Source: Pseudophaeomoniella oleicola
Lineage: Eukaryota; Ascomycota; Eurotiomycetes; Phaeomoniellales; Phaeomoniellaceae
Direction of reading: 5' to 3'
Length of the DNA stretch: 64,000 nucleotides
NCBI GenBank assembly: GCA_003868215.1
Contig: QWDQ01000058.1
Coordinates: 1-64,000, forward strand
Under the pieces are notes generated by a model. The model did not search any database. It saw nothing but the letters and a program-made list of their open reading frames with translations, and was not told the DNA's origin. A program made the position numbers and the translations under genes. Below are positions 26,963 through 53,380 of this stretch, in pieces; position 1 is the stretch's first letter; every line of letters begins with the position of its first letter.

Positions 26963-28635
26963 TCAGCTCTCTTCCACTCTCTCGAACCAAATCAACTCCT
27001 TCAATGCGAATTCCAGTCGCAATCCAAGCTTGACGGCTCTACTGTCTTCAAATACGAATTCAGCTTGGACTGGGTCATCACCACCTTCCCAAAGATCACT
27101 CAAGTGTGCAGTGTATACTGTCTGGTCACGGACATGATCGAACGTAAGGGTAAATCCCATCGAGCGATCTGTAGCATCGATAAAGAGCTTGCCATCCTTG
27201 ATCTGAACGGTCAACCCATGATACCCAGGATGCTGGTATCTGCCTACGTACGCCTCTAGCGGTGCCACTTGTGGCTGTGAGTTCTCGACGTGAGTTTCCT
27301 GCGGCTTATTTCCTTTGCCGTCTACTTTTTGTTTGCCTTGATTGTCTCCTTGACGCTCTCCTCGACTATTGCTTTGGTCTTTGGTTCTATCCTTTCCCTG
27401 AGTTTGTAGCCCACGCTTTGGCTTGATGGTAAGACCACCCTTTAGGGTATCGTGTGGTACCTTGTTTCTGATCTGATAGAATTGATCTGGCTCCTGTACT
27501 TTGAGGATGTCATCAATCAGCTCTCGAACCAAAGTAGTGGCGACTGAGCCAGCTCCGGTCGAATTGCCCAAAATCACAACGCCAAACTTCAGGTCAGGGA
27601 GAAAGCAGAAGCGGCTTCCAAACCCTGACGTTACACCGTTGTGACCGACAACCGTATGACCCCGATAATAATATATATCCAACCCCGCTGCGTACACAAC
27701 CGGTGAGGTATATGGTTTCAACCTTCTCGCATTTGGGTTCGGAAACGATCGCATTCGTACGAGACCCTGGTATACCCTCTCATTGATGGGGTGCTCACGG
27801 TTCACCAAAGCCTTAATCCAGATGATAAAATCGTTCGAGCTCGAAATGATCGAGCCTGCACCTTGGCCCTCCGGACAGCTTCGGATCTGCAAGCCAGTAT
27901 AGGCTGCATTTTGCTTGGTCCAGTAATACCCTGTCGCAAGACGGTTTCCATAGCCTTTGACCCGAGCAGCTTCAGGTTGAAGGCTAGTCGATTGCATTCC
28001 CAGTGGTCGGAAAATTCGCTCATGCAGAAAATCAGCGAAACTTCGCTGGCTTTTTACCTCTACGAGATAAGTTGCCACTGTGTACATCATGTTGCAGTAG
28101 AGATATTTTGTACGTAGAGGAGCAACCACAGGCAGATTTCGCAGGTTTCTCGTGACGCTTTGCGCATCGTCTGGTTGCACCGCTCTTGGGCCTAGATAGG
28201 AATTGTCATGACTGCGTACTACTGTCAGTGATGAGATCAAGCGTGAAGGTGCAGAGATTGTTACGCAGCCATGCCAGTCCTGTGACTTAGGATATCATCT
28301 AGAGTAACACCATTTGTGTATTCAACCCTAGGCATTACAAAATCGTCGGGGAGCAGTTTAGACACTACGGCGTCGTACTGCACCTCGGGAAAGTTTTCGT
28401 TGTCATCAACAAGCAGTCCGATCGAGGCCGCAGTCAAAGATTTAGCAGACGATGCGATATCGAAAAGCGTATCTGCGGTACATGGTGTTAACGGTTCAAG
28501 AGACGAGTTCCCGTAGCCTGCAGAAATGACTTGGTCGTTCTGGACAATGGCGATGGCAAGACCAGGCACGTGATGTTGCCTCATCAGATCCTCCACGTGA
28601 GACTTGAAGCTTGTAGCATAGAAGTAGTCCATCAT
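26963..28635 (-). CDS. Beta-lactamase-fold serine hydrolase (class C / PBP-like)
   Basis: A serine hydrolase of the beta-lactamase/penicillin-binding-protein superfamily; in fungi these act as esterases, peptidases or in secondary metabolism, and the substrate here is unknown. Two exons, 28265-28635 and 26963-28211, 539 aa. The catalytic SxxK is Ser62-Ser-Ala-Lys65, the Tyr-x-Asn motif is Tyr162-Cys-Asn164, and the third-box equivalent is HNG in VVGHNGVTSGFG. There is no signal peptide, so it is probably cytosolic. Between the catalytic domain and a C-terminal beta-rich domain (YVGRYQHPGYHGLTVQI) lies a very hydrophilic Lys/Gln/Gly linker of about 60 residues. The gene is divergent from a Zn2Cys6 regulator 612 bp away. 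Intron donor is GTAACA, less usual. Confidence 0.9.
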
Positions 28636-29247
28636 TAAAGAATGATTGTGCTCTCGCGCGATGATGGCCGGTGTCCAGAAGCCCTATTCTCGGAGTCTGA
28701 ACGCGCAGTACAGATTGAAGCATACATAGCCCCCAACCAAATGAAGGATATAATTACGTAGCACGGTATTCAGCAAGCGTTAGATAGGATATCACCGCGA
28801 ATTCGCATCGATCCCTTTTGATATTCGGCTCGAGAGCCACTGCATACTTTAGGCGAGCTCTCAAGCAGTCTTCTGATGCCAAAATGACATTGCTCCTTGG
28901 ACAAGAGAAGCGCAATTGAGGTGGTAACAAATTGGAAAGCGAGATCTGAGATATAATTAATAGATACCTTAGTAAGCTATACGGATATACGTAATACCGA
29001 GCCGGAAATAACATAATATTGTGACCGGAGGTATTCCGGCGGAGATGAGTAGGTAAACTTCATTCTGACTCTTTGGACAAATACGAATATCTTAACGTCT
29101 CGGATGTAACTGGGGTCATGGTGCATAATACGAGCTATATTGCATCGCATACACCGGATACAGACCACAGGCTCGAAGTTTCAAGTTTCTCGGCTGCGAT
29201 CATGCAACACACATATTTCCGCGGCTATATGTAATACCTACAATAGC
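28636..29247. promoter_or_regulatory. Bidirectional promoter: hydrolase and Zn2Cys6 regulator
   Basis: A 612-bp divergent promoter shared by the reverse hydrolase gene and the forward regulator gene. Such head-to-head pairs are often co-regulated (inference). No clear inverted CGG pair, the usual Zn2Cys6 site, was picked out by eye. Confidence 0.5.
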
Positions 29248-31455
29248 ATGAATATCCGGACTGCCAAGGCCTGTGAGCCATGTCGGCATCGCAAGGTCAA
29301 ATGCAATGGAGAGTCACCTTGCAACAATTGTGGCCTCAACTCTGTAGGCTGCATATATCGCCGGGCTATCCGTAACCGGAGACGCACAGCTCGACCGTCT
29401 CCTGCAAACACCGGCCACAGAGACTCACCTGAGCAGGAGTTCCTCACAACAACAAACGCTCCCGATTCGTCCCCTCAAGCACCTCGAAATTCTGAATTGA
29501 CACGTAACGAGGAGGTGTACCACAGTGTGAGCGCAACACAAGCCCACGCCCCATCAGGGCACTTGCAACTCTTCTACGGAGCATCATCCAATTTTGCGTT
29601 CCTGCAGCAAATACACCGCAGCCTCGCCAGAGGCGGAAAGCAAAATGTGGCCGTTCCGGGGGAAGTGCAGGAAGGCGGCGAACCCTTAGACATGTTTGTC
29701 CAGCGAGGACTGTTCTTCGGTACTAGATCTCTAGCGGATTCTCATTCGTTTTCCACTTTCGACCGAAACGGGTTAACCTTAGACATGGCAATGCTCTTTC
29801 TGGACTGTTTCATGGTGAGCTCGAATTGTCTCCTGCAATTCCTAAACGAATCAGACCTACGACAGTCGATCAAGTCCATTTGCAACGGCGGTGACGCTAA
29901 TAAACTCGACCCGCAAAGCCGGGCCATTGCTTTAATTGTGTTGGCAGTCGGTGCCATCGGAACCGAGCATCTTGATCTAGCCGACGTCTTATTTTCAAAG
30001 GCAAAGGAGATAAATACCCTATTAGATGAAGCCGTCAATCTCCAAGCGGTCCAATTATCCCTCATACTTGCTCATTATCAACTTATGATGGGTCGCCCAA
30101 ATTTGGGATATCTGCAGCTCGGCATAGCGTGTAGAAAGAGCCTTGCAATGGGTCTACATAAGGATGTTTGCGCCAACAAGGGAACAGTGTCTCCAGAAAC
30201 AGAACGGCGAAGAGCCACGGTGTGGTGCGTTCATTTCCACGAATGGTAAGTGAGCAAACATTCATGCCGGCGACACCGCGACGGCTAATGATTTTGTACA
30301 GTTGGCTCTCCTTGAAGCTGGGCCGGACCAAATCCATGAATTCAGCGGATATGTCTTGTCCATATCCACGGGATCAGTCCTTTACTACAGGATTAGGACG
30401 CCTGGCAAAAATAATGGAACAAAGTACCGAAAAAGTGTATGGACAGAAGCTAGGATCTCTCTGGGACATCTACCAGGCAGCGAAGCAGATACGCGCTGAT
30501 CTCCAAAAGTTTGCTGACGATTTTGAACTTCTCGCACCGCCAAACAACGAACACTTGGGTAACAAAGCTTATGAGACGATCCTTCTCAGTAATTGTGAGG
30601 CAATACTACCAGCTGGCTGACGTCGTAACTAACAGCGTTCAAGTCTATTACCACACCATATTACTGACATTCCGTCCCTTTCTGATAGCCGAAGCTGCCC
30701 TACGGGGAAAGCTTAAAGGGCCACAAGTCCAGAGCGATAGCATCCCCGCGATATCTCTCAGTGGTGACGAAATGTGGTTACGTGAGGCTAGCAGACATGC
30801 TATAGATGCTGCACAGGATCAGATCTCTTTTATACTGAGCCGGACCCGTTCCACACCTTTTTGCAAGGTGAGTGATAATACCAAAGTCTCCAACCGTATG
30901 TTTCTAACATATCAAAACAAGAATATGAGATATAATACTTTTTTCATCGAGAGCTGCTGCTGCGTCTTGTTATACGACAGCTTATGGCGTCGATATGCAT
31001 TTGATTACAACCTGCAGTATATCAATGCCGGTCTCCACTGCTTGTCTGAGATAATCACCGGAGAACCAACTAAAACAGCGAAGACCTCAATTGAGCGGAT
31101 CCTGAATCTTGTTCGCCACGAGATATCTCAGCAATCGCTCTCGACTCCCACTGGCAACCACAGGAGATCAACGAATGAACTTTCGAATTCGTCAACACCC
31201 ATTGCGGCAATTAGAGAAGTTTCGGGTCTCCCAGATCAGCATAGTATACAAGCACCTACTCAGGCATCCTCCAATGCCGATCAGGTGACACAAATGAGCG
31301 AAGGGATTGATGCGATGTACACTGATTACAATTTCCCACATATGGACTTGAACTTTGATATCTTCACCACGGACCTTTATCACTTCTTCCCAGTTGATTC
31401 TATGGATGGCCAGAACTATCTTGCGACGGCTCCTTATAGCAGTAGCCGAGGTTGA
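29248..31455 (+). CDS. Zn2Cys6 transcription factor
   Basis: A fungal nuclear regulator. Four exons, 29248-30245, 30302-30594, 30644-30867 and 30922-31455, 2049 nt, 682 aa. The zinc cluster lies at the very N-terminus, Cys9-x2-Cys12-x6-Cys19-x5-Cys25-x2-Cys28-x6-Cys35, with basic residues RHRKVK between. The middle (about residues 190-480) fits the fungal-specific transcription factor domain, with stretches such as LILAHYQLMMGRPNLGYLQL and YYHTILLTFRPFLIAEAALR. The third exon's start needs an acceptor at 30643, supported by a CTAAC branch point. The 54-nt last intron reads through in frame and could be retained. The ATG at 29248 is chosen because it puts the cluster at the usual distance from the start. 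Target genes are unknown; the divergent hydrolase is the nearest candidate. Confidence 0.9.
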
Positions 31456-36741: not shown

Positions 36742-38380
36742 TCAACTGGCCCATCCTCTGCTCATCTGGACGGCCTTCTCCCATCGATCAAAGCGAGCTT
36801 GGCTCTCATCTGGCATGATTTGAGGTTTGAAGACAGTTCTGCCTTCAATGTTCACCTTGTCCAGCTCGTCAAGGTTTTCCCAGACTCCGGCAGCGAGCCC
36901 TGCAGCAATCGCTGCACCCAATGCAGTGGTCTCACGCATGGCTGGACGATTGACGGGAATCTGAATGATGTCGGATTGTGTCTGATCCACCCATTAGCGA
37001 AGAGCACTCCCATCTCAGCTGTAGAAAATGCTCACTTGCATGGTAAGGTCCGAATTGCACATGCCCCCATCGACAGCCAATTCCGTCAGAGCGTGTCCGC
37101 TATCCTTCTCCATAGCGTTCAAAATTGCCTTGGTTTGGAAGCATGTAGCTTCCAGAGTTGCTCGCGCGACATGCCCTCTCTTTGTGAAAGCAGTAATACC
37201 AAAGAGAGTGCCTCTGGCATCGTCAATCCAGTAAGGGGCGAAGAGGCCGCTAAAAGCTGTTACAAACGTACAGCCACCGTTATCGTCAACAGTTTCAGCG
37301 AGAGCGCTGATCTTGTTGGATGCTTCAATGAAGCCAAAGTTGTCTACGAGGAACTTGATGCTAGAACCAGCCACAGCAATGCTTCCCTCAAGAGCATACA
37401 TGACCTTTCCACCGAAATCGTAAGCAACCGTCGTCAGCAGTCCGTGTCTCGAGATCACCGGTTTATCTCCAACGTTGTACAGCAGGAAACAGCCTGTGCC
37501 ATATGTGTTTTTAGCCATACCTGGATGGAAGCCCTTTTGGCCTACCAGTGCAGCAGACTGATCCCCCAGACAACCAGTAATATGGAAGCCTTCCAAAGAG
37601 GTAGAAGCTAAAGTTCCATATGCCACCGGGTCCGAGGAGTGAACAATCCGGGGTAGATGAATCTTTTCACGGTCCAGACGGAAAAAGTCAATGAGTTGGT
37701 CATCGTATTCGAGCGTTTTAATGTTCATGAACATGGTACGTGAGGCATTTGATGGGTCTGTCACGAAGACATTCCGCTTTGGACCACCGTTCAATTGATA
37801 TACAAGCCACGTATCGACTGTACCGAAGGCCAAAAATCCTTTTTCATATGCTTCTTTGACAGCTGGTACGTTTTCCAGCAACCACAGGAGCTTACCGACA
37901 GAAGGATAGGTGGAAAGAGGAAGGCCGCAAAGGTCTGTGAGTTCGCCTGAGCCCAGACGGTGCTTTAGTGTTCGAACCAAGCTCTGTGTTCGAGTGTCTG
38001 TCCACACAATTGCGTTATATAGAGGCTCTCCCGTTACTCTGTTCCAAACAACGGTGGTCTCTCTTTGATTGGTAATTCCAATGGCCTTAATGCTGCTGGC
38101 GGAGTGCCCTTGGTTCTCGAACGCTTCAACGGCAGCGTTAATGCATTTCTCCACAGATTCAACTATCTCCAGCGGATCGTGCTCGTGCCATCTATGTCAG
38201 CATTAACCACTTTCTCTTTCCTCACATTCCAGCAATAACTTACCCAGGCTGTGGATATATTTGTGTAAACTCCAGCTGGTGTGCGGCAACGGGTTCTCCG
38301 TAGTGATTGAAGATGAGGAACCGTGAGCTTGTTGTGCCCTGATCTATCGAGCCAACGAAGTGTTCCTGCACACTGCCCAT
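36742..38380 (-). CDS. gut1: Glycerol kinase
   Basis: Phosphorylates glycerol to sn-glycerol 3-phosphate with ATP in the cytosol, the first step of glycerol use. Three exons, 38244-38380, 37036-38191 and 36742-36981, 1533 nt, 510 aa, the normal length. The FGGY-family opening motif DQGTTSSR is at 13-20. Then come [11 protein letters not shown], the [13 protein letters not shown] stretch, [11 protein letters not shown] and the C-terminal ATP-binding [12 protein letters not shown], where intron 2 falls in phase 0. Introns are 52 and 54 nt. The start at 38380 places DQGTTSSR 12 residues in; the overlapping longer frame upstream is in another phase. It is transcribed away from the Zn2Cys6 regulator that lies between it and glycerol-3-phosphate dehydrogenase. 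Confidence 0.97.
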
Positions 38381-40000
38381 CTTCCTCACTTCGCACACTC
38401 TTTCGAGTTGAGGATCTTGGAGACAAGCTGGGCAAGGATACGAAGAGCTTGGGGAAGATGGGAGTGGGGTCTGTTGAAAGCGATCCAGTCCGGGGCATGT
38501 TCAGGCCTTTGTACCGATTGGAACACGTTCGATTTCAAGGAAGGAGATGGCTACCCCACGGGGCCTAGGCAAGGCCATTCCGCCTAATCTACCAGCTGGG
38601 GGAATTATCACGGGGTTCCCGCGACTCCTGCTGAGCCTTGCAACTTCGGTGAGCCGAATTTGAGTAGCGGCTACGGATGATGCCGTGCTGTAGCTCGGTA
38701 TTGTCATCACCGAGGAAATTGATAGAACCACGGGAGACCGAGGGTGCCATGGCCCATGAGGGCATGTGACCATTATAGGAAATAAAAGAGAAGGAATGTG
38801 GCAGCACAAACCGGGCCATGGTTCATATAGTTTCGTTTAGGTGGAAAGGAATCGAAGGAAAGCGACAAGATGGTGGGGGACATATCGGCACCGCCAACCC
38901 CTACTCTAGAACGAACAGACCTTCGGTTATGTACTTAGTACATGTGTCCAGGCTTTCGGGAGGGTTGGGGACGGCCTTGGTTTAAAGATGGTTGACATAC
39001 ACAACCTGCTTAATGTTAACATGCTCATGGAAGTATGGTCCAGAGTAGGAGTATTGATCCGGAACCAAGATGCCTTGGGGCATAACCTACCAGGTACCTT
39101 ACATGAATGATGTACCTATCGTAGTTTCTAGAACCACACAACTCTTCTCTAGCCTCATGGGACCGTCGAACCCGCATGTGCATCCTCCGGAAGATAGAAA
39201 TGGTTAGCTAAGTCTAGGTATAGTAAGTATGGGTATACTACGTATTAGGTAGGATGCTTGAGACAAGCAAGAATTTCAAAGTAGCTTCCTACGCCAGGTC
39301 TGAATTCAGCCGGTGTGGCACGCCCTCTCTGTCATATGTTGGGTACCTACCTCAGTATTACCAATTGTCCGTACGGTTATTACGGGAAAAATACCAGAAT
39401 GGTTTCCATTATTACCAGGTACGAGATACCTTACACTACCTACGAGGTAATTAGGACCTACCGTAGTAGGTACCTACCTACCTACCTGGTAGTTATCTCA
39501 GAAGCATTAATTAACTATTTACTGGGATACCTATCCACCGCCCGGTCTGTTGGCACGGCTTTGCCTTGTCCTTATGCGGAGGCGGGGAAAGGGGAATGAA
39601 GTGCAAGGTGATCATTCTAGATTGAGAAATTATCGTCCTCCGTTCTCTAACGTTTCTTCTCTTTCATCTACAACGTACACAGTTATCCATGTCCATTTTT
39701 CCGTCTGCCCCCTTTGCGTCCCCTCTGTGATACTATTACTATTTCCTACCTCAGAAAGAAGTGCTTCTTTTTACCATGGAGACTGCAAGGGTTTACACTG
39801 TGTGCAGAGGGTTTCTGACGTCGCTCATACCCAACGTGTAGGCCGCAGGAGTGGCATACTCAGCTTTAATTTCAGTCTAAACGCCAACACGAACCTTTGG
39901 CATTGCAATTCTTGATATTCAGCATCCAGGTTGTTCTTGACATCTCTACTGGTTCAAAGAGCGTACATGAACGATCGGCCAAGTCCTACACCCTCAGATA
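38381..40000. promoter_or_regulatory. Divergent promoter region: glycerol kinase and Zn2Cys6 regulator
   Basis: 1.6 kb between the divergent starts of the kinase and the regulator. The middle (39220-39500) is rich in GGTACCTACC-type repeats. There is an upstream open frame just before the regulator start. No other gene was seen. Confidence 0.55.
39456..39492. repeat. CCTA/TAGG repeat cluster
   Basis: A run of ACCTACC-type units preceded by GTAGTAGG, so that the two halves are partly complementary and could fold. Similar GGTACCTACC words occur about 110 bases upstream. Confidence 0.8.
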
Positions 40001-40038
40001 ATGGAGGAAACAACCCCGGCTTCGGCGTTTGGGAGTAA
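39967..40038 (+). promoter_or_regulatory. Upstream open reading frame overlapping a regulator's start
   Basis: A 23-codon frame that starts at ATG 39967 and stops at 40036-40038, overlapping the regulator start at 40001 in a different phase. If the transcript begins upstream, ribosomes using this ATG would bypass the main one. Whether it is transcribed is not shown by the sequence. Confidence 0.45.
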
Positions 40039-42080
40039 CGATGAGCCACTTACCGACGAGGAAATTCCTGCAGATCAAATCACAGACCGTAAACGAAAGA
40101 GGTCATCTCAGAGAATCTCGTACGTACATTTTCAACTTCGGCATCTACCTACATGATTCACGCGGGAGGGGAATGACCCACTGACTAAGGGAATGTAACA
40201 GCTGTGAATTGTGCAAAGCAAGGAAAGTGAGGTGTGATCGGGCTGAGCCAGCATGTTCGTGGTGTGCTCGCCATAATCGACAATGCGTCTATAAGGAAAG
40301 GCAGAAACCTGGTATCAGGGTTGGCTACGGCCTGGAGTTGGAGGCTAAAATTCATCGCCTGGATGCGATGTTACAGGTCCTCGGGCGTCGAGTTGAAGAT
40401 CATATTCAGAGTCACGATGTTCGCTATACCTCGTCGCTTTCTCCAGGTTTGTCGCAACAGAGTGCCCGGGTTGCTACATGTGACAATCCTGCCAGAATGC
40501 CAAGTATCGGATCTGGAGATCACACGGAGGCTTCCTTGCCGCATAGTCTCTGGCAAAGTACCAACGTACGTGGTGAAACACGGACAATGAATACACCTGA
40601 AGGATTATCGGTTCACGCTTCAGTCAGTGTGCCAGGTTTTGAATCATTCGTACATCCAGAGACTCCTACTACAATCGCTTATGGGCCCCAGATTGTGCGT
40701 GAGGGAGCCTATCTGAGTACCGATCCACATCTACTACCAAGCGACATACTTTATACCCTCGTGGACCTATACTTTAAACATGTGAATACTTGGTGCCCCA
40801 TCTTGGATCGGAAGGCAACATTCACGGCTTTCTTTGGAACAACGTCTCTCAAGAAAGCAGATCGGATATTACTCCATGCTATCGTATCAACTACCTTGAG
40901 ATTTCTGAATGATCCACGCCTCACAGCCGAAGCCAAAAGGCATTATCATGATGTCTCCAAGCGTGAGGTTGAGATTTATAGTCTGGAGCACGTAAGCATC
41001 GAAGCGCTTAAGGCACTTGTGATACTGTCTTTGGATGTTCTTGGATCATCAAATGGCCCAGGAGGAAGGAATCTGTTGGCCCTTGTTGCCCAAAATATCA
41101 TCCAGTTGGACCTTTGCGTGGAGACTAACATTTTCCTCTCAGCTCCAGCAGCTCCAGCAATCTGGTCTGTGAGGACAGTAGCCTTGTCCCAACCAAACTC
41201 CTGGATCGAAGACGAGGGACGCCGAAGGCTCTGCTGGATGGGGTATATTCTTGATCGCTATGCTACAGTAGCCACATCATTCGATTTCATGTTAAGCGAC
41301 AAGGAAATGAATCGCGCATTGCCGTGCCGATATGATCTTTTCTCAAAGAACGAACCCGTCGAAACGAGGTCATTCCACTGGGCTGACAGGTCTATACCAG
41401 GGGATTTATTGAACAAACCGGAGAATCTGGGCAGTTTTTCTTACCACTGCGAGGTTCTCAGGATCCTGAGTCGCATCCACAACTTCCTGAGGGAACCGAT
41501 CAATATCGACTCAATTAACGATGTGCAGCAATGGCGAGCCCACTATCGAGCGCTGGACGGAGAGTTGAACTTTTGGCTAAATGGTGTACCTGGCGAATAC
41601 GGAAAGATATCTCAGCTTTGCCATAGTGACCCGGCAAGCCGTGTTGCCAACTGGATCATGCTACATGCTGCGTTCGTCCTTTCTGTAATTCGTCTGCATT
41701 CCTCTGCCGCCTATCCCACTGTCTTTTCGCCAAATTTCATGCCATCATATTACGCGATGCAACGATGTCTTTCGGCAGTGGAGAGTTTAGGGGATATTGC
41801 TCAAGATGTCATGGATACGAAAGGATTAGACCTCCTAGGACCGCCGTTCGCCTTCTCACTTTGGTCTTCAGCGAGGTTACTACTTGTGCATGCTGCTACA
41901 ATGGCCTGTGAAGTTGATCCAAAGATTGATTTCTTCATATCGACCCTAAGATATATGGGTCAATATTGGGAAGTTGCCGACAATTATGCCGAAATACTAA
42001 CCAGGATTGTTAAAGAAGATCAAAGTGGGATCATGACGTTTACAGCCATGAGAAGGCAAGGTGGTCTTGATCTTTGGTGA
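40001..42080 (+). CDS. Zn2Cys6 transcription factor between the two glycerol genes
   Basis: Two exons, 40001-40119 and 40202-42080 (82-nt intron, GTACGT...TAACAG), 1998 nt, 665 aa. The binuclear zinc cluster spans the splice site: Cys41-x2-Cys44-x6-Cys51-x6-Cys58-x2-Cys61-x6-Cys68. It is followed by the linker KPGIRVGYGLELEAKIHRLD, a form common among fungal regulators, and a dimerisation helix. A fungal-specific transcription factor domain covers about residues 205-450 (for example WIEDEGRRRLCWMGYILDRY). A basic RKRKR near residue 30 may be a nuclear signal. It sits between glycerol kinase and FAD glycerol-3-phosphate dehydrogenase, which suggests control of glycerol catabolism; this rests on position only. 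The start was chosen as the ATG in frame with the cluster; an out-of-frame ATG lies 34 bases upstream. Confidence 0.92.
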
Positions 42081-43483
42081 TCTGAAGCTGACATGGCGCA
42101 GACGTGCCTATGATTTAACTCTGTTAACCTCCTCCCGACGGCGCGCGATCCTCGAACCAGTAGCAACAAGGCATATTTCGTCGAACGAACTCGAATATAT
42201 TGACATATTCGACTTTTTCAATTATCCTCGCCTTGTTGCTGGCACTCATGACACGGGAAATCCGACTAGATCGTGCAACTTTGCAATCCCAAATCCGGAA
42301 TCTGACTGGCTTCGCTTTCAGCCTCCACATGAATAGAAAGGCCGCATGCTGACAGCATCGTCAACCACGCATGGTACGACCGCCTTTCGATACATCGCAT
42401 AGAACTTCGGAGAACGTATAAAACCGTAATGGTAATACGATGTTTGTCAGATCCGACGGACCCCACTCCCGTCTGGAAGGTTGTAACCCTAACTTAGCAT
42501 CACGTTCTCTAGTCACAACCGCCGGCGGTTATGGTCGGCAACTGGTTCATGTAAGAACAGGGATGGGGTTTCTTACTAGGATGTTAGGAAGTAATCGGAT
42601 GAACTTGCCCAGAATCTTCCTATCCCGGAAAATACAACTTCCCAACAACGTGGGGTATCCCTCGGCCCTTTTCATTTTTCAGGGCAGATCGATCGATCGT
42701 ACCGAGAGATCTTTTCCTGCGGAGACGCTGATCCGGGGATATCCTATGGGGCTGTAGTATCACGGACTATTCCTCTGGTGATTTCGTAAATCAGTCGAAG
42801 CATGCGCCAACATTGTGCTCTATTCTGCGAGTCGGCTGTCATTAGGCAAAGTCGTTGGCTTTCGGCCATTTCGCCGGCCGCTGAATTCAAGCGGTGTCGC
42901 TTACATCGCATACCATGCCGTCGACTTTGTGCTGCTTGCCGAGTTCTGCCGAAGGCCTCGTCGGCATCCATTCTTGGCCTGCACACCCTGGTCCTTTTGG
43001 AAACGGAAAACGTTAACCCCGAATAGCGAAACCAACTCTCGGTGTCAAATCACCGAGATGCATCAGCACCAAGACATTTTCTATCTTCGAATATCTAGAG
43101 TTCGGAATTCTGTATAGCGTGTCCGCCAACTGCATCTCCCTGAAGCCTCACACTTCGCATAGTCACTGGTGTGGTCCGGTGGACCTACCAGAGCGAGCAT
43201 CTGGACACAGATGATTTGGCGGCCGTTCATTTGACTACCAGCAACTAAGGTAATTGTGGTCGAATGTCTGTGGTCCATACTGCCACGTTGTTGGATTGCA
43301 TTTCATTTCCTTGAGTCTTTATAAATTGCGCCTTCGACATGTTCGAGACTGGTTGCACGACATGGCTACCCATTTTCCCGAGTTGCTTCGTGACGTACTT
43401 TTGGTGATAGACACGTCTCTTTATTCCTTCAGTGGGTGGCAGCGTTGATTTCATTCGTTTAGCGACCAGGCAAAAGTATAAGC
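42081..43483. promoter_or_regulatory. Promoter of glycerol-3-phosphate dehydrogenase
   Basis: 1.4 kb between the regulator stop and the dehydrogenase start. Short open frames only, none convincing. It holds the regulator's 3' UTR and the dehydrogenase promoter. Confidence 0.5.
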
Positions 43484-45787
43484 ATGTCTGTCCGATTCCA
43501 GTCCAGGCGGCTACTCAAACCGCTGGTATACGCAGCAGCGGCGACCACCACAGTCGGTCTCGCTGTATACGTTACGACGAAGCCTCGTGCGTTCTCTGAA
43601 GCACAATCGATACCTCTCAAACGCGACGAGCATGGGCGCATAATACCTCCAAACTTTCCTGTGACGAAGTCTCGCACGGAACAGTTGGCTGACCTCAGAC
43701 GGTACAGTCTTTCCTCGGACGAGGAGTACGATTTAGTCATCATTGGTGGTGGTGCAACTGGCACCGGAATCGCTCTTGATGCTGTAACGCGGGGTCTGAA
43801 AGTCGCGCTGGTAGAACGCGAAGACTTCAGTTCCGGTACATCATCAAAATCAACCAAGCTTGTCCACGGCGGTGTCCGCTATCTAGAAAAAGCCGTCTGG
43901 AACCTCGATTATGGTCAATATCAGCTGGTTCGCGAGGCTCTCAAGGAGCGACGGAACTTCTTAAATATCGCACCCCATTTGTCCACCTCTCTACCAATCC
44001 TACTTCCTCTACAGAAATGGTGGGAAGCTCCATACTTTTGGGTAGGCGCGAAGGCATATGATCTTCTCGCCGGCTCAGAAGGGTTAGAGTCTTCATATCT
44101 TCTGACAAAGAACAAAGCACTAGAAGCGTTTCCGTTACTCAGGAAGAGTGATCTGATCGGTGCTCTGGTATACTATGACGGTCAGCATAATGACAGCCGA
44201 ATGAACGTGAGCATCGCCATGACCGCAGCTCTGTACGGTGCAACGATGGTGAACCACATCGAAGTCACTGGGCTAGAGAAGGACGCAAAAGGGAAGCTCT
44301 GTGGTGCTAAACTCAGAGACATGATACCTGACAAGGATGGCAAAGGGGGTTTCTCGTCAAATAGGGAATTTGTCGTCAAGACGAAGGGTATCATCAATGC
44401 CACGGGTCCCTTCGCAGATGCAATAGAGAAGATGGACTCACCATCAAAAATGGCAATCGTTGCACCAAGTTCCGGAGTGCACATCGTACTACCTGGTCAC
44501 TTAAGCCCGAAGAATATGGGTCTGTTGGATCCGGCGACTTCAGACGGGAGAATGATATTCTTCTTGCCGTGGCAAGGTAATACCATCGCAGGCACCACGG
44601 ATGCGTCATGTCATATTGAAAGAAATCCCGTGGCTGAAGAAGATGATATTGGTTTCATCTTGAAGGAAGTGAAAAAATATCTGACGCCGGATGTCAGCGT
44701 GACTAGAGACGATGTCCTGGCTGCCTGGTCTGGTAAGTGTGTCTCCTGAAAATACTTCCACCACCCTTCCCAACTTCAACTATTGTCCTTGCCTCTTCTT
44801 GCCTGCACTGCCCCTTTTCCCTTCTCTTCCCAGACTAACGTTTATAATCTAGGCATTCGTCCTCTTGTCCATGACCCGAATTCCAAAGACACAGCGTCAC
44901 TCGTTCGCTCTCACTTGGTCACAGTTTCAGAATCCGGCCTCCTCACCTGCGCCGGCGGCAAATGGACCACATACCGTCAGATGGCCGAAGATGCAGTTGA
45001 CGCCGCCATCAAAGCCTTCAACCTGAAACCGTACACCCCTGAACCCATCGACATCTCGGGAATATCCTATCCCTCGAATGTTATCCCATCTCTCGACCCA
45101 GGAGCCTGTCAAACCGCACACATCCGCCTCATCGGCTCGCACGGCTACTCTAAGACACTGTACATAAACCTCATCCAAACATTCAACCTCACAGCGCCTG
45201 TTGCCCAACACCTCGCGACCAACTACGGTGACCGAGCCTGGGAAGTTGCCAGACTCTGCAGCCCATCCACTCCCACTACGTCTACTACCCACCACCATCA
45301 ACCCCTCCGTAACACCCTCCTCTCTCCCCTCTACCCCTTCATCGACGGCGAAGTCCGCTACGCCATCCACCACGAACAAGCCCAAACCGCTATCGACGTG
45401 CTCGCACGCCGCACGCGCCTCTCCTTCCTCAACGCTCAAGCCGCGCTCGACGCCCTGCCGCAAGTCATCGACCTGATGGCCGACGAACTGCACTGGTCTG
45501 ACCACAGGAGGTCGTTCGAGTGGACTGACTCGGTCGCCTTTCTGCAATCGATGGGTCTACCCGCTTCGTTGATGGGGGTGACACGCGAGCAAGTCGTAAA
45601 GGGGGAGTACGGTGCTGCCGCTGCTGATGACGGGACTTTGCTCGTTGGTGCAGGGGCAGGAATCTCATCACCGGACACCAGACCGGGCTTCACACACGAT
45701 CTATCCCCAACCCCAAAGCCGCGCAAGCAATCCCTCCTGTCATCAATGAGCACATTTCTATCTCCAAACAGTAGACCCGAGCACTGA
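43484..45787 (+). CDS. gut2: FAD-dependent glycerol-3-phosphate dehydrogenase, mitochondrial
   Basis: Oxidises glycerol 3-phosphate to dihydroxyacetone phosphate at the inner mitochondrial membrane and passes electrons to ubiquinone. Two exons, 43484-44732 and 44853-45787, 2184 nt, 727 aa. The N-terminus (SVRFQSRRLLKPL then a hydrophobic stretch) looks like a mitochondrial presequence and membrane anchor. The FAD Rossmann motif is at about 84-95 (LVIIGGGATGTG), and SSKSTKLVHGGVRYLE and GTTDASCH are family motifs. Intron 1 (120 nt) joins AWSG to IRPLVHDP. The second exon encodes the C-terminal domain and ends in a Pro/Ser-rich tail; it is markedly more GC-rich than the first, with many C-ending codons. 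This gene and glycerol kinase make the full glycerol-to-DHAP pathway. Confidence 0.96.
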
Positions 45788-46350: not shown

Positions 46351-47337
46351 TCAATCTCTTTTGCCCAATCCATAGCCCCCGTACCCACCATATCCGCCGT
46401 ATCCATTACTTCTACCGATACCGGCACCGTTGCCGTTACCGTTAGTCCCGCCTCCAAGCAAGCCATCCCAAGCCTTCCCGCGCGTGTATTTCTTGCGTTC
46501 GAAATGCATGACGACGATACCACCGACGCCGGCGCTCGCGAGGCAAGCGGTGACGCAGAGCAAGAAGAAGCCGACGCCGTGGTCGCGTACGCGCGGCGGG
46601 AGCGGTCTGTCGGCCATGCCGGGGAGCACGGCGCCGTCGATCCAGGCGATGTTGAAGGTGAAGACGACGGGTTCGCCGCGGATGATTTTCGAGCCTTCTG
46701 GGTAAGGGGTTTGGGCGGTGATGGTGGGGAGGGAGTAGGCGGTCGAGGCGATTAAGTAGGAGGGAGAGGAGGGGGAGGTGTGGAAGAGCGTGTTGATGGA
46801 GGTGTGGATGTGGAGGTGGGAGAGTTGGAGGGTGCCTTGGAGGGCGATTGTGAGGGGGGTCCATTGGTTTGGGGTTGTTGCTGGTGGTGGCGCATCTGGC
46901 GCTGAAGTCGTTGGGGCGGCGTCTTTGAGATCGGAGGGAGATGGCGATAGCGGGTATGACGGTATCCGGCAGGTCAAGGGGACATCGTTATGTACGTAGA
47001 ATTCGAGTAGGTGGTAAAGCTCATCTTCGAGATTGTCGATGGTGCAAGTCTGTGTGGTAGGTACCCCGTACGCGAACGCAAGCGAAGAGCCCGTCTCGTT
47101 GCACACAGGAAATGGGATGTACTGTAGCCCTCCGCTCGCGTCTTGAATGTGCTCTCCCGTCTCAATTGTGCGATTGAGACAACTCACGGGGACGGGCGCA
47201 CCTATGGAATATCCAGGCTTCACCGCTCTGAGGACCTGTTGTGAACCATCGTCGCTTTCCACCGCGGCTGCGAGGGTGACCCAGAAAGTTAGCAGGGCAT
47301 GCACTGCGAGCCCCAAATGTCGAAGAGCAAGCAGCAT
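46351..47337 (-). CDS. Conserved fungal type I membrane protein, function unknown
   Basis: A single-exon gene of 328 aa. It has a signal peptide (about residues 1-26), a lumenal or extracellular domain with several cysteines and N-glycosylation sites (for example CLNRT, CNETG), a Pro/Ala-rich segment near 150, one membrane span (VGFFLLCVTACLASAGVGGIVVM), then a short cytosolic tail with a basic ERKKYTRGK and Gly/Tyr repeats (YGGYGGYGGYG). From memory, similar uncharacterised proteins occur widely in Pezizomycotina. It separates the glycerol genes from the acetate kinase and phosphoketolase pair, with no evident metabolic role. The gene body is very GC-rich in its 3' half. Confidence 0.85.
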   Translation of the reverse strand: MLLALRHLGLAVHALLTFWVTLAAAVESDDGSQQVLRAVKPGYSIGAPVPVSCLNRTIETGEHIQDASGGLQYIPFPVCNETGSSLAFAYGVPTTQTCTIDNLEDELYHLLEFYVHNDVPLTCRIPSYPLSPSPSDLKDAAPTTSAPDAPPPATTPNQWTPLTIALQGTLQLSHLHIHTSINTLFHTSPSSPSYLIASTAYSLPTITAQTPYPEGSKIIRGEPVVFTFNIAWIDGAVLPGMADRPLPPRVRDHGVGFFLLCVTACLASAGVGGIVVMHFERKKYTRGKAWDGLLGGGTNGNGNGAGIGRSNGYGGYGGYGGYGLGKRD

Positions 47338-47936
47338 TGTCAGCGCGTGGATTGTGCAGTGCTTGCCCTGCTTGTTGCGACGCTCATCAAGAACGAAGAG
47401 GACCTTGTTGATAGAATTGTTTTTGGAGAAAGGCCAGGGTGTGTATTAGTGTTGCTCACTAACGACGGAGATCATCATGGTCAAGGATTCTTTTGGCATT
47501 GGTACTTACGCTTTATGATTTCGAGTCTCGGTTTACAGACTGCAGCAGTGCTTCGAGTTCGCGAGTATTACAAAAGTCACGTGAAAGACACTGAGAGACC
47601 AATATGACAGTATGGCTCTACCGTTTGCACAAACCCTCGCATCTGTGATACACCCCTCTATAGATCTCACCTGCAAGGGATGATGATGTACCATGGTACG
47701 ATATCGCATGGATCAAACCATGAGACAACGTGGTGGTAGTTTCCTACATCAGTTTCCATTCCCCATGGGGGTGGTATCTCCTTCATTGTTCATCCATCAT
47801 TAATTCTAACATTGAGCAGTCAGATTACAGGTGCATCTGGATGTCCTCCGGAGTTTGTCAGAAGCGTCTGTCTTTCTAACCTATACATTGATCCCATATT
47901 GTCTCACGGCATAAGAACTCACCGAGGGGTCAATCA
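47338..47936. other. Intergenic: membrane-protein promoter and acetate kinase 3' UTR
   Basis: About 600 bases with nothing recognisable. It should hold the promoter of the reverse membrane-protein gene. Confidence 0.45.
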
Positions 47937-49308
47937 TCATAGACCTTTTTCCAGCAGGCAGCCGAGGGCCATCTCGTACTGTGATAGTTTATCAGCACTC
48001 CACTCTCGTCTCTTGCGATATCTGACTTGACTTACCTCCTCATCTGTCTGTACGACCAACGTCTTCGTTTTAGGGCTCTTCCCACTAATATCAGCCACCG
48101 TCATATCTGCGACTTGATCATTTTTACTGTCGTCGATGCTAACTCCAAGGAACTCGACTGCATCCACGATTCGCTTCCTCAACAGCGCACTCTTCTCACC
48201 AATGCCACCAGCGAAGACAACGGCGTCCACTCTCCCACCACACTTGACGAAATAAGATCCTAAGTAACCCAAGATACGGTCCACAAAGATATCCAATGCC
48301 AATTTTGCGCCATCGCTTGCGCCTGGCTTTGCGATTTCTGCAAAATTGGTAGTTCCAGCAACGGCCTTCCAGCCAGATTGCTTGTTGAGAATCTCTTCAG
48401 CGGTCGTAATGTGTAGTTCTTTTGTACTGCTTCTGGACAAACTAGCTGCCTCACTTGTGTAGTGGAAAATCAGACTCGGGTCGATGTCCCCAGTTCTGGT
48501 GCCTCCGGGAAGACCTGAGACAGGGGTCAGACCCATTGTCGTGTCCACTGATTTGCCATTCTTTATTGCGCACATAGAAGCGCCCGAACCCAGATGGAGA
48601 GCAATGATCGAGGTATCTTGCGGACTCTTGTTGAGGTATTTCGAAGTCACCCGTAGTATATAGGAATACGAGGTTCCGTGGAATCCATATTTCCTCAAAC
48701 CCTTCTTCTGCGCAATTTCTTGGTCGATCATATATGTGCGCGTTGCTTCCGGGATGGTAACGTGGAAAGCTGAATCGAAGCAGCCGATGTTCTTGACATT
48801 TGGCAAACGAGCAACACAGCTTTGGATGATACCAATCGCTGCCGCGTTATGCCTATGGACGCGTTAACGTAAAGCTCATGGTGGTCATTCGTATCGCCTG
48901 ATACGTGCAGGAATCTCACAGGGGAGCCAATTCTTCTACCGCTTCCAACCTGTGCAATGTGTCTGGTGTGATTTCTACATCACGCCCAAAGTCTCCACCA
49001 TGCACAACCCGGTGGCACGCGTATCGGATATCTTCCTTCCCATTGAATTCCTTCAGTTCTGGATCTTGAACGAACAGGTCGAGGATATGTTCGAATGCGT
49101 CGTCGTGGGTTGAGACATGCGCGTCACTGTTCTCTGGCTTCGCACCGGTCCTCGTATATTTGAGTTGCGCAGGTGGTGCAGTCAGACCAGTGATGTTCGC
49201 GGCCGCAATCCTTACCGGGATAGTATCATCTTCCGGACTGGGTTTGAACAATGTAATTTTCAACGAGGAAGAGCCGGCATTGATGGACAGAACCAAATCA
49301 CCGGCCAT
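47937..49308 (-). CDS. Acetate kinase
   Basis: Interconverts acetyl phosphate plus ADP with acetate plus ATP; in fungi it works with phosphoketolase. Three exons, 48920-49308, 48036-48852 and 47937-47978, 1248 nt, 415 aa. The nucleotide and substrate motifs are clear: NAGSSSLK at 10-17, CHRVVHGG, KKGLRKYGFHGTS, LHLGSGASMCAI, GLPGGTRTGDIDP and FAGGIGEKSALLR. Introns are 67 and 57 nt; the second reads through in frame. The ATG at 49308 gives the standard start. The frame stays open upstream to ATG 49443, which would add 45 residues beginning MLRGFRLFLLPAARY, resembling a mitochondrial presequence. It is divergent from phosphoketolase across 1.6 kb. Confidence 0.95.
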
Positions 49309-50050
49309 CTCAGGTGAAGTAACAGAAGCTTCAATCCTACTCCTGGATTCCAACGGCTGTGGCACAGAGCGTTGTAGTGCTTGCTGGATATTTACCGTGT
49401 ATCGGGCTGCTGGCAGAAGGAACAAACGGAATCCTCTTAGCACAGGTTGTATTGTACTGGAAGAGGTTCACGGTCGAACCAGCAGTTGGTCAATTTACAG
49501 TTGGAGACAAGATATGAAAGCCAAAGTCTGTTGATTGGGAAGAAGAATGTAGACGTATGTAGATGTAGTAGTGTTTATTTAGTGACGGTGGAACTCGCCA
49601 GATTACCGGTTTCATTGTCTTACTCGCTCTCTTTATAAATGCAATCGGCATCGGCAACAACATTTGAGATACCTACTCACTCACTCCGAGGGGGGATGCA
49701 TGTGGGATAACGTTGTCGTTGCCATGGGCTGACCCATCATGAGACTACAACTTCGACGAAGATCACCCCATTCATCGTCCTTTTTTACCCTTGTCTCTAC
49801 CCCGGCATTGGAGGCGGGTTACGATGTTGCCGACAAAGCGACGAACCCATCTAGAACATACCGAAGTCTCTTACCGTCGCCATGAGTGCTCGACTAAGAA
49901 TCGGGAGAGGCAGGTCTTTTTCCTCCAGGCTAATATAGCGATATGGGAGGGTTACATGAAGGGGAAGCATCGATGCCCGTCCTGGCACAGGATACAGGGG
50001 ATACAGGATACACGAAATGGTATTACTCTGCTGGCGCTCTGTTTGGTATG

Positions 50051-50064
50051 GTACTACGTAGTAC
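50051..50064. repeat. Palindrome GTACTACGTAGTAC, copy 4 (14 bp)
   Basis: Perfect 14-bp inverted repeat containing the recurrent 12-bp word, in the acetate kinase to phosphoketolase promoter region. Confidence 0.9.
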
Positions 50065-50333
50065 ACTGTAATGCCCCGCAACCCCTCATTGTCTATCGTA
50101 TTGTACGTGTAGAGCTTATCGATTAGGAGCTAGGTAATTACTGTAATCATCACTTATTACCCGATAAGCTCCTTTCATACTTACATCGTGTTGATTGTAG
50201 AAACATGAGATGCAAAGATGAAAATCCCAATTGCCTCTGGGTGTACAATTACAACATGTACCTGACTAATGTACCTGTCCCCATAAGTATTGGTTGGAAA
50301 GATGAACAGAGAGAAAGAGAAATGCACATACCA

Positions 50334-50345
50334 TACTACGTAGTA
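50334..50345. repeat. Palindrome TACTACGTAGTA, copy 5
   Basis: Perfect 12-bp inverted repeat in the same divergent promoter region. Confidence 0.9.
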
Positions 50346-50487
50346 ATACTCTTAGTCATCTTCAAGTGCGGGTCAACCGTTTTTGCCGGAGATCCCGATC
50401 GGTTCACGTCATCCACAATCCATCGTCTTTTCGCTTTCAAGATTTTGTAGAGATTGATAAGAGGAAGATGAGCTGTTGATATCCTGC

Positions 50488-50497
50488 ACTACGTAGT
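50488..50497. repeat. Palindrome ACTACGTAGT, shorter copy
   Basis: A 10-bp core copy in the same promoter region, followed by ATGTAGTAT, which partly repeats the right half. Confidence 0.8.
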
Positions 50498-50884
50498 ATG
50501 TAGTATCCTCTGCCCTGATGACTGGATGTGGACGTGCTTCTTTCATGGCCATTGACTTCACCAAGCAGGACTTCAACTATGATGTTGGTAGGTTATCTGT
50601 ATCCAGTAACACGTACACTGTTTACCCACTTAATTATACCCAAAGGTAAGACAGCTCGACAGGTACAGAGCCCTTGTCATCACGACAATTACGTAGGTCG
50701 ACACCGCACCACGAAATCCCTTCCTTCATATAGGCCATTTATGTTTACCTTGTACATGTTCACCAACCCATCAAAGTCACACTGTTTTCTTCTTGACCCT
50801 TTTTCTTCTACCTTGACAACTTTGTTTTGGCACTGCAACGTACTTGAAGCACAAAGTAGCCGCTGAGACTGTAAGAGAGGAAAG

Positions 50885-53380
50885 ATGCCGGGTGAAGTCA
50901 TCGACCATCCAAATCCTGAACCCCTTCCTTCAGCAGTGCCCGACTATGTTGAGCAGCTTCTGGTCAAACTGGAAAAACCCACGCTTGCCGAAGATGTCAA
51001 TCATACCTTGCAGAAGTATAGGCGAGCAGCAAATTACATCGCTGCTGCCATGATCTTCTTGGGAGACAATGTGTTGCTGAAGAGAGATCTCACCTTTGAC
51101 GACATCAAACCAAGGCTGTTGGGTCACTGGGGAACATGTCCGGGCTTGACGCTCGTCTACTCACATCTGAACATCCTCATCAAGAAATACGACCTCGAGA
51201 TGATCTACGTCGTTGGCCCAGGCCATGGCGCACCAGCGTTGTTGGCCAATCTCTGGCTAGAAGGTTCTTTGCAGAGATACTATCCACAGTACTCCCGTGA
51301 TGCTCAGGGCCTACACAATCTGGTGTCCGGTTTCAGTACAACGGGGGGACTTCCGTCACATATCAATGCGGAGACTCCTGGCGCCATTCACGAAGGCGGT
51401 GAGCTTGGTTATGCCCTCGCCGTATCCTTCGGGGCTGTCATGGATAATCCAGATCTCATCGTCACTTGCATCGTTGGAGACGGTGAAGCTGAAACGGGAC
51501 CTACGGCCACGGCGTGGCACAGCTACAAGTACATCGACCCCGCCGAATCAGGTGCAGTATTACCCATCGTTCATGTGAACGGATTCAAAATAAGTGAGCG
51601 TACAATTTATGGTTGTATGGATAATAAAGAAATGGCTGCTTTGTTCACTGGCTATGGCTACCAACCACGCGTGGTGGAAGATCTCAACGATATCGATGCC
51701 GATCTTAGCAACTCACTGGAATGGGCCTACAGTGAAATCCGCAGAATCCAAGAAGCTGCCCGGTCAGGCAAGCCTATCGCAAAGCCTCGATGGCCGGTCA
51801 TCATCTTGCGTACGCCTAAGGGCTGGAGTGGTCCAAAAATTGTGCACAACGAGTTTGTCGAAGGCTCATTCCATGCCCACCAAGTTCCACTTCCAAAAGC
51901 AAAGACCGATGCTGGCGAATTGAAGGATCTTCAAGCGTGGCTTGAGTCGTACAAAGCTAAAGAGCTCTTCAAAGAGGATGGCGATATCACCGATGACATC
52001 AAAGCGCTGATGCCTTCGAAAGACGACAGAAAGCTCGGTCAGAGTAGACTCGTCAATTCTGCATACACACCACTCAAGCCTATTGATTGGAAATCATTAG
52101 GAGCCAAAAAAGGGTCCCAAGCGAGCTGCATGCATACTGTTGGCTTGCTGTTGAAACAGGTTGTGCAGGATAATCCAAAGACATTCCGTATCTTCTCACC
52201 AGACGAGTTCATGTCTAACAAGCTTGACCCCGTACTCGACGTCACCGGGCGAAACTTCCAATGGGATCAATTCTCTAATGCTCAAGGTGGCCGACTTATC
52301 GAGGTGCTTTCAGAACATCAGTGTCAGGGCTTCATGCAAGGTTACACCTTGACAGGCAGAACTGCACTCTTCCCTTCTTATGAGGCATTCCTTGGTATTG
52401 TGCACACCATGATGTAAGTGGTCTGCTACCATGATGCAATTCCTATGCTAACCACACTTAGGGTACAATACGCCAAGTTCGGTAAGATGGCTAAGGAGCT
52501 ATCCTGGAGGAATGACAGCCCAAGTGTCAACTATCTGGAAACAAGCACTTGGACGAGACAGGAACACAATGGTTTCAGTCACCAGAATCCGTCTTTCATT
52601 GGCGCTGTGTTGAATCTAAAACCAAATGCTGCTCGGGTATATCTACCACCAGATGCCAATACGTTCATTTCGACCGTAGCACACTGCTTTCGGAGTAAGA
52701 ATTATGTCAATTTGATGGTTGGTAGCAAGCAGCCTTCGCCAGTATACCTATCTCCGGAAGAAGCTGAGAATCACTGCCGCGCCGGTGGGTCGATATGGAA
52801 GTTCGCAAGCACTGACGAGGGTCTCAATCCCGATGTCGTCCTTGTCGGCATTGGAGCTGAATTGACTTTCGAAGTGATTGCCGCCGCCGAACTCCTCAAA
52901 AAGCATGTGCCGGAATTGCGTGTGCGTATCGTTAATGTTACCGACCTCATGATCCTTGGTTACGAGTCATCGCACCCACATGCCCTGACTGACCAATCTT
53001 TCGATGCTCTCTTCACGGAAGACAAACCCGTCCATTTCAACTACCACGGCTACGCAAACGAAATCCGTGGCCTCCTCTTCGGTCGCCCCAACATGCACCG
53101 CGTGACGATTGCGAGCTACAAAGAAGAGGGCACGACTACCACGCCATTCGACATGATGCTCGTTAACGACACCGACCGCTTCCACATCGCCCGCCAGGCC
53201 ATTATCGGGGCCGCGAAGAGCAACGAGAAGGTCGCCGCAAGGCTGCAAGAGCTGACCACCTTTTTCGACCAGCAGAAGAGAGATGTCAAGAAGGAGATTC
53301 TGAGGACGAAAGCAGACCCGGAATACCTTGGGGATGTTGGCATCTTTTCGCAGGATTCTAGTTCACTTGCTGAGGGTTAA
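50885..53380 (+). CDS. Phosphoketolase (Xfp family)
   Basis: A thiamine-diphosphate enzyme that splits xylulose 5-phosphate (and often fructose 6-phosphate) with phosphate into acetyl phosphate and an aldose phosphate. Two exons, 50885-52413 and 52462-53380, 2448 nt, 815 aa, the usual length of about 800. Visible motifs are the N-terminal RAANYIAAAMIFLGDN, GHWGTCPGL, GPGHGAPALLANLW, and the diphosphate-binding GDGEAETGP at 198-206. Later come ETSTWTRQEHNGFSHQNPSF and VNVTDLMIL. The 48-nt intron joins HTMM to VQYAKFGKM. It is divergent from acetate kinase, which uses its product, so the two make a complete acetate-forming, ATP-yielding shunt. The last 400 bases are more GC-rich than the rest. 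Confidence 0.97.

What the first reader, a model, noticed from the sequence alone, without database searches (positions are those of the whole stretch)
36742..45787. Glycerol catabolism cluster with an embedded Zn2Cys6 regulator
Glycerol kinase and FAD glycerol-3-phosphate dehydrogenase, the two steps from glycerol to DHAP, flank one Zn2Cys6 regulator. These enzymes are usually discussed as unlinked genes in yeast. The gene order kinase, regulator, dehydrogenase suggests a pathway-specific controller. Enzyme identities are secure; the regulatory link rests on position.
Basis: partly seen in the sequence, partly recalled or inferred. Interest (0 to 1): 0.75.

Follow-up and report, generated by a model that had tools for sequence, protein, structure and literature searches.

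The report
Glycerol-use gene cluster with regulator
A fungal genome keeps two glycerol-breakdown enzyme genes beside a switch gene related to a known sugar regulator, and distant fungi keep the switch next to the same enzyme gene, which makes it a strong candidate for a glycerol control gene.

Summary
In detail: glycerol kinase (GUT1, minus strand), a Zn2Cys6 regulator (plus) and FAD glycerol-3-phosphate dehydrogenase (GUT2, plus) lie at 36742-45787; the regulator has a third exon and ends at 42336. The linkage recurs. Regulator and kinase share a contig length in 16 of 23 species present in both hit lists, and in 7 of 7 assemblies with comparable locus tags they are one or two numbers apart; GUT2 is linked too in Phaeomoniella and Chaetothyriales. 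The regulator is a paralogue of a second gene that is probably RhaR, the L-rhamnose activator, since that one stands divergent from a putative L-rhamnonate dehydratase gene as rhaR does in Aspergillus. A 2014 paper described a second class of RhaR, outside the rhamnose cluster, of open function, in the same fungal groups. Best reading: class-2 RhaR is the glycerol-pathway regulator, laid out like rhaR/lraC. Regulation is inferred: no expression or binding data, and the promoter-motif test was uninformative. The regulator's tree joins this lineage with Sordariomycetes rather than Chaetothyriales, perhaps through horizontal transfer.

The parts
36742..38380 (-). GUT1, glycerol kinase, 510 aa; introns 38243-38192 and 37035-36982
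   Evidence: gene model; FGGY_N, FGGY_C; TIGR01311 above cut-off; 6zq4
38381..40000 (.). divergent intergenic region, 1620 bp, between the start codons of GUT1 and the regulator
38696..38712 (.). CGG-N11-CCG, the form bound by RhaR; candidate only, not above chance
   Evidence: chance of at least one in this region 0.23
40001..42336 (+). RhaR-type (proposed class 2) Zn2Cys6 regulator, 719 aa; introns 40120-40201 and 42077-42170
42337..43483 (.). GUT2 upstream region, 1147 bp; holds no CGG-N11-CCG
43040..43055 (.). CGG-N10-CCG inverted repeat upstream of GUT2; weak candidate
   Evidence: inverted CGG/CCG with gaps 5-17 in this region: 8 observed, 4.1 expected, P 0.10
43484..45787 (+). GUT2, mitochondrial-type FAD glycerol-3-phosphate dehydrogenase, 727 aa; intron 44733-44852

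Best explanation
This is a dedicated glycerol-catabolic mini-cluster. GUT1 phosphorylates glycerol and GUT2 oxidises glycerol-3-phosphate to DHAP at the mitochondrial membrane (identities shown by sequence, location by family knowledge). Between them lies a paralogue of the L-rhamnose activator RhaR, proposed to be the class-2 RhaR of the literature. By analogy with RhaR it would be activated by a glycerol-derived signal, bind as a Gal4-like dimer to CGG triplets, and switch on the divergent GUT1 gene and, in this lineage, GUT2 (activation, inducer and targets are all inferred). The genome holds a further kinase, a further dehydrogenase and a probable true RhaR elsewhere, so the cluster looks like a specialised copy set.
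For: Regulator and kinase on a contig of identical length in 16 of 23 species present in both lists, with no coincidence of length between different species. Locus tags: regulator-kinase 7 of 7 same-prefix ordered pairs differ by 1 or 2 (Malbranchea, Stylonectria, Hirsutella minnesotensis, Ustilaginoidea, two Ophiocordyceps australis, Phialemonium); regulator-GUT2 3 of 3 differ by 1 to 3; kinase-GUT2 1 of 1 differs by 2. The nearest paralogue in the genome, 50% identical, is divergent from an ORF whose best NCBIfam model is L-rhamnonate dehydratase (355 bits, under that model's cut-off of 393), the rhaR/lraC arrangement reported for Aspergillus and other ascomycetes. Zinc cluster and linker resemble that paralogue and, among solved structures, Gal4 most. 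The RhaR paper reports a second RhaR class, outside the rhamnose cluster, in the same groups.
Against: No expression, binding or knockout data. The RhaR-type site is not enriched: one in the GUT1-regulator region (chance 0.23), none upstream of GUT2, and none between the C58 RhaR gene and its dehydratase ORF either. In 7 of 23 species the contig lengths of regulator and kinase differ; rows are clusters of several strains or the listed kinase is the second type, so these cannot be judged here, and some may be real separations. Linkage of GUT2 outside Chaetothyriomycetidae was not assessable. In A. nidulans the kinase and dehydrogenase genes rise on glycerol, yet that fungus typifies class 1 and is not named among class-2 holders, so other regulators can probably do the job.
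Confidence: 0.76

Rival explanations
1. The regulator is a second rhamnose or pectin regulator that merely sits next to glycerol kinase.
For: It has a 50% identical paralogue that is probably RhaR, and RhaR/PDR-1 acts on rhamnose and pectin genes.
Against: A separate probable RhaR gene next to a putative L-rhamnonate dehydratase gene exists in the same genome; neighbourhood of the window-type regulator with glycerol kinase recurs in Eurotiomycetes and Sordariomycetes.
Confidence: 0.12
2. The genes are linked for reasons of chromosome structure or shared promoter only; the regulator controls something else and the pathway answers to general carbon regulators.
For: A. nidulans induces its kinase and dehydrogenase genes on glycerol and is not named among class-2 holders in the passages seen; no motif signal.
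Against: Linkage is kept between two taxonomic classes, over which gene order is usually scrambled (general knowledge); RhaR controls its divergent neighbour.
Confidence: 0.12
3. The cluster is larger and also takes in the neighbouring acetate kinase and phosphoketolase genes as one carbon-dissimilation block.
For: Acetate kinase ORFs (49467..47940, -) and phosphoketolase ORFs (50867-53380, +) lie downstream of GUT2 with one longer ORF of no Pfam family (46351-47445, -) between.
Against: Linkage of this pair to GUT2 in relatives was not tested; I recall the pair as neighbours in many ascomycetes on its own account.
Confidence: 0.08

Closest known systems
RhaR / PDR-1 (A. nidulans AN5673, N. 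crassa NCU09033) with divergent lraC
   Same: Same type of protein, same cysteine spacing as printed for RhaR (C-X2-C-X6-C-X6-C-X2-C-X6-C), same layout of regulator divergent from a catabolic enzyme gene
   Different: Neighbour is glycerol kinase, not L-rhamnonate dehydratase; the genome has a separate gene in that place. AN5673 itself was not compared by sequence
Class-2 RhaR of Pardo and Orejas 2014 (PMC4245848)
   Same: Same groups reported to hold it (Histoplasma, Blastomyces, Paracoccidioides as single copy; Fusarium, Nectria, Trichoderma, Colletotrichum, Verticillium with both classes); lies outside the rhamnose cluster
   Different: The passages seen do not mention glycerol kinase beside it and leave the function open; its sequences were not compared here
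Fungal catabolic clusters with an embedded Zn2Cys6 activator (quinate, ethanol, proline; recalled)
   Same: Pathway enzymes beside a pathway-specific binuclear-cluster activator
   Different: Glycerol pathway; regulator of RhaR type
Unlinked GUT1 and GUT2 of Saccharomyces (recalled) and AN5589 / AN1396 of A. nidulans
   Same: Same two enzyme steps, both induced on glycerol in A. nidulans
   Different: Not linked to each other (A. nidulans judged by locus tag only), no embedded regulator known

Membership tests
Glycerol kinase (GlpK/GUT1) | FGGY kinase above the GlpK equivalog cut-off | tested here: met
   670.6 bits against 590.35
Mitochondrial FAD glycerol-3-phosphate dehydrogenase (GUT2) | DAO plus DAO_C domains, closest relatives annotated as such | tested here: met
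   72% to the Phaeomoniella protein
Zn2Cys6 regulator | six-cysteine cluster plus fungal transcription factor domain | tested here: met
   above both cut-offs
RhaR (class 1, L-rhamnose activator) | divergent from L-rhamnonate dehydratase (lraC) | tested here: not met
   The window neighbour is glycerol kinase; the copy next to a putative dehydratase is on contig C58
RhaR class 2 | RhaR homologue distinct from the lraC-linked copy, in the groups named in 2014 | tested here: met
   Distinct gene; hits in Emmonsia and Malbranchea, Fusarium, Trichoderma, Colletotrichum, Verticillium agree. That 120 of 120 hits are nearer to the window protein than to C58 RhaR is partly a product of the query
RhaR class 2 | groups with the class-2 sequences of the 2014 tree | not testable with these tools
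   Those sequences were not at hand by name
RhaR class 2 | neighbour of glycerol kinase (proposed here) | tested here: met
RhaR-type DNA binding | CGG-N11-CCG sites in target promoters | tested here: inconclusive
   1 in the GUT1-regulator region, 0 upstream of GUT2; chance of at least one 0.23 and 0.26
Glycerol-pathway activator | loss abolishes glycerol induction of GUT1/GUT2 | not testable with these tools
   needs a deletion strain

The most novel reading that the evidence does not exclude
Class-2 RhaR is the glycerol regulator of the filamentous ascomycetes that have it, and the regulator-kinase pair moved as a self-regulating cassette between Eurotiomycetes (near Phaeomoniellales) and Sordariomycetes. 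The regulator tree groups the window and Phaeomoniella with Sordariomycetes and rejects grouping them with Chaetothyriales (p-AU 3.2e-5); the kinase tree leans the same way without significance.
Probability: 0.2. Interest if true: 0.75.

Novelty: new member of a known kind. Interest (0 to 1): 0.57.

Why it matters
A 2006 A. nidulans study called regulation of glycerol synthesis and breakdown less studied than that of ethanol, and the 2014 paper left the second class of RhaR with a possible but unnamed specialisation. The conserved linkage turns both into one test: delete the class-2 gene in a laboratory Trichoderma and look at glycerol. It would also be a clean case of a duplicated regulator that kept its layout, divergent from an enzyme gene, while changing pathway.

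Tried and rejected
Promoter motif: CGG-N11-CCG occurs 20 times in the window against 11.03 expected; 15 of the 20 lie in ORFs and one more in GUT1 exon 1. Of five promoter regions tested, 3 hold one, with chances of 0.11 to 0.23; over all five the chances are 0.11 to 0.26. The region between C58 RhaR and its dehydratase ORF has none. Given no weight.

Shared words of 11 bases between the two intergenic regions: three, two of them overlapping, no pattern.

Horizontal transfer as the main reading: not adopted, because the kinase tree is undecided (79/75 for Phaeomoniella plus Sordariomycetes; with Chaetothyriales instead p-AU 0.149; all Eurotiomycetes together 0.060), the only outgroup for the regulator is one long branch, and the groups were chosen after seeing the tree.

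Literature: ten searches, three of them without any paper, gave no listed title or start of abstract on a Zn2Cys6 regulator linked to glycerol kinase in filamentous fungi. Only open-licence papers are held, and one search listed 20 of 31. PMC220342 is not held.

Not done: structure prediction, as it would not decide the question.

Full report
What is there. The window lies in a 26.1-Mb, 112-contig assembly. The best hits of all three proteins are from Phaeomoniella chlamydospora at 70, 87 and 72% identity, so the host is probably a relative of it (Phaeomoniellales). Gene models from splice sites give GUT1 38380..36742 (-), a regulator starting at 40001 (+) and GUT2 43484..45787 (+). The regulator was first read to a stop at 42080; a further intron at 42077-42170 leads to a stop at 42336 and 719 aa. 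Of the 120 listed hits, 87 have at least 715 aa; 84 of these 87 cover at least 70% of the exon-3 residues, median identity 39%. Domain and structure-library searches identify the proteins.

Linkage in other fungi. No fungal DNA could be read, so linkage was taken from the protein searches, which show the longest contig of each protein cluster and sometimes an ordered locus tag. In one search, 80 of 120 regulator hits, 84 of 120 kinase hits and 15 of 120 GUT2 hits were used; hits without an organism name were dropped, and among GUT2 hits also Aspergillus, Penicillium and others with no regulator hit in the list. Regulator and kinase have a contig of the same length in 16 of 23 shared species, regulator and GUT2 in 5 of 7, kinase and GUT2 in 5 of 8; no two different species share a length. 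Locus tags agree: Malbranchea 8255/8254, Stylonectria g462/g463, Hirsutella minnesotensis 08518/08517, Ustilaginoidea 00404/00403, Ophiocordyceps australis 4903/4904 and 639/641, Phialemonium 9149/9147 for regulator/kinase; Cladophialophora carrionii 08456/08459, Rhinocladiella mackenziei 07460/07463, Exophiala mesophila 06264/06265 for regulator/GUT2; Exophiala bonariae 003796/003798 for kinase/GUT2. A Trichoderma virens pair (165228/91895) was left out because I recall such JGI numbers not to follow gene order. Malbranchea is Onygenales, Stylonectria Hypocreales, Phialemonium Cephalothecales, Cladophialophora Chaetothyriales, Verticillium Glomerellales, so the regulator-kinase link spans Eurotiomycetes and Sordariomycetes. 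Orientation in relatives is not known.

Misses. Seven shared species show different lengths for regulator and kinase: Drechmeria coniospora, Exophiala dermatitidis, E. xenobiotica, Metarhizium anisopliae, M. rileyi, Rhinocladiella mackenziei and T. virens. For R. mackenziei the listed kinase falls with the second kinase type. In the other six at least one row stands for several proteins or contigs and only the longest contig is shown, so linkage cannot be judged; some may be true separations. The two GUT2 misses with the regulator and the three with the kinase are E. dermatitidis and E. xenobiotica, and E. sideris, E. xenobiotica and R. mackenziei.

Paralogues in the genome. The regulator has one close paralogue, 50% identical over residues 29-648, on contig C58; the next matches score 43.5 bits or less and mostly cover the zinc cluster only. 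That paralogue is divergent from an ORF with enolase-superfamily domains whose best NCBIfam model is L-rhamnonate dehydratase, 355 bits against a cut-off of 393 on a partial ORF. In A. nidulans and other ascomycetes rhaR is divergent from lraC, the L-rhamnonate dehydratase gene. The C58 gene is therefore probably RhaR; AN5673 itself was not compared. One hit of the window regulator carries the name Quinic acid utilization activator (P0019), presumably transferred by similarity; this was not tested. A second kinase gene lies on C20 and falls on a long branch with second kinase copies of Chaetothyriales (49 of 120 hits used, quick tree). A second dehydrogenase lies on C18, 58% identical to the window's, and groups with the Aspergillus proteins, away from the window copy and the linked Chaetothyriales copies (27 of 120 hits, quick tree, branch support 92, not starred). 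Downstream of the C18 gene lies an amino-acid transporter ORF; the same domain is fused to GUT2 in three listed hits, which suggests that this neighbour marks the ordinary GUT2 locus.

The second class of RhaR. Pardo and Orejas 2014 (PMC4245848; passages seen) report two classes of RhaR in ascomycetes. [quoted passage not shown] The window regulator's hits include Fusarium, Trichoderma, Colletotrichum and Verticillium and the Onygenales Emmonsia and Malbranchea. All 120 listed hits score higher against it than against the C58 gene, which is partly expected because it was the query. I infer that the window gene is class 2 and that its conserved neighbour, glycerol kinase, names the missing specialisation. 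The word glycerol has no occurrence in that paper's main text.

Mechanism. The zinc cluster and linker resemble the C58 gene and, among solved structures, Gal4 most. A. nidulans RhaR binds CGG-X11-CCG, its mRNA is present without rhamnose, and it needs the sugar to act; a metabolite of the pathway is the likely inducer. The Neurospora homologue PDR-1 differs: its expression responds to inducing and repressing conditions and it moves into the nucleus when rhamnose is present (PMC5469009, passages). By analogy the class-2 protein would be activated by a glycerol-derived signal. The promoter test gives no support either way. In A. nidulans the kinase AN5589 and the dehydrogenase AN1396 rise on glycerol (PMC1794588, passages), so the two genes are co-induced in a relative. 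A. nidulans typifies class 1 and is not named among class-2 holders, and no Aspergillus protein is among the 120 listed regulator hits, so another regulator probably serves there.

A discordant tree. With the C58 gene as outgroup, window and Phaeomoniella join Sordariomycetes at 100/100; holding all Eurotiomycetes together, or Phaeomoniella with Chaetothyriales (Lithohypha included), is rejected (p-AU 0.0014 and 0.0003; 26 of 120 hits plus two own). Without the outgroup the second test, now without Lithohypha, gives 3.2e-5 (16 of 120 hits plus the window). The kinase leans the same way, 79/75, but does not reject the alternative (p-AU 0.149; 20 of 120 hits plus the window). Between twelve rows were dropped (two long ones, four unnamed, six others) and four added; ten more were dropped. 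The groups were chosen. Transfer, hidden paralogy and model error all remain open.

Verdict. Observation confirmed with one corrected gene end; interpretation strengthened by comparative linkage; regulation inferred. Ordinary in kind (enzyme genes with an embedded activator), new in pathway and in giving class-2 RhaR a testable role.

Noticed in passing
47940-53380: Acetate kinase ORFs (49467..47940, -) and phosphoketolase ORFs (50867-53380, +) form a divergent pair downstream of GUT2, with an ORF of no Pfam family (46351-47445, -) between.
   Followed up: partly
29110-31455: A second Zn2Cys6 regulator gene (Zn_clus and Fungal_trans in 29110-30246, +) upstream of the cluster, near a beta-lactamase-domain ORF (26966-28294, -).
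   Followed up: no
17180-20737: RNA polymerase Rpb2-type subunit gene, usable as a species-tree control for the transfer question.
   Followed up: no
L023:4181-6110: Second glycerol kinase gene on contig C20, on a long branch (0.75) with second copies of Chaetothyriales; it may have changed function, or its 3' end is misread (584 aa).
   Followed up: partly
P0102 (no window place): The one Collariella (Sordariales) protein among the 120 regulator hits groups among Hypocreales rows in the tree, which suggests transfer or contamination.
   Followed up: no
L024:6775-8010: Amino-acid transporter ORF (Aa_trans) downstream of the C18 GUT2 gene; three listed GUT2 hits (P0327, P0331, P0342) carry the same domain fused to GUT2, perhaps merged neighbour genes.
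   Followed up: partly
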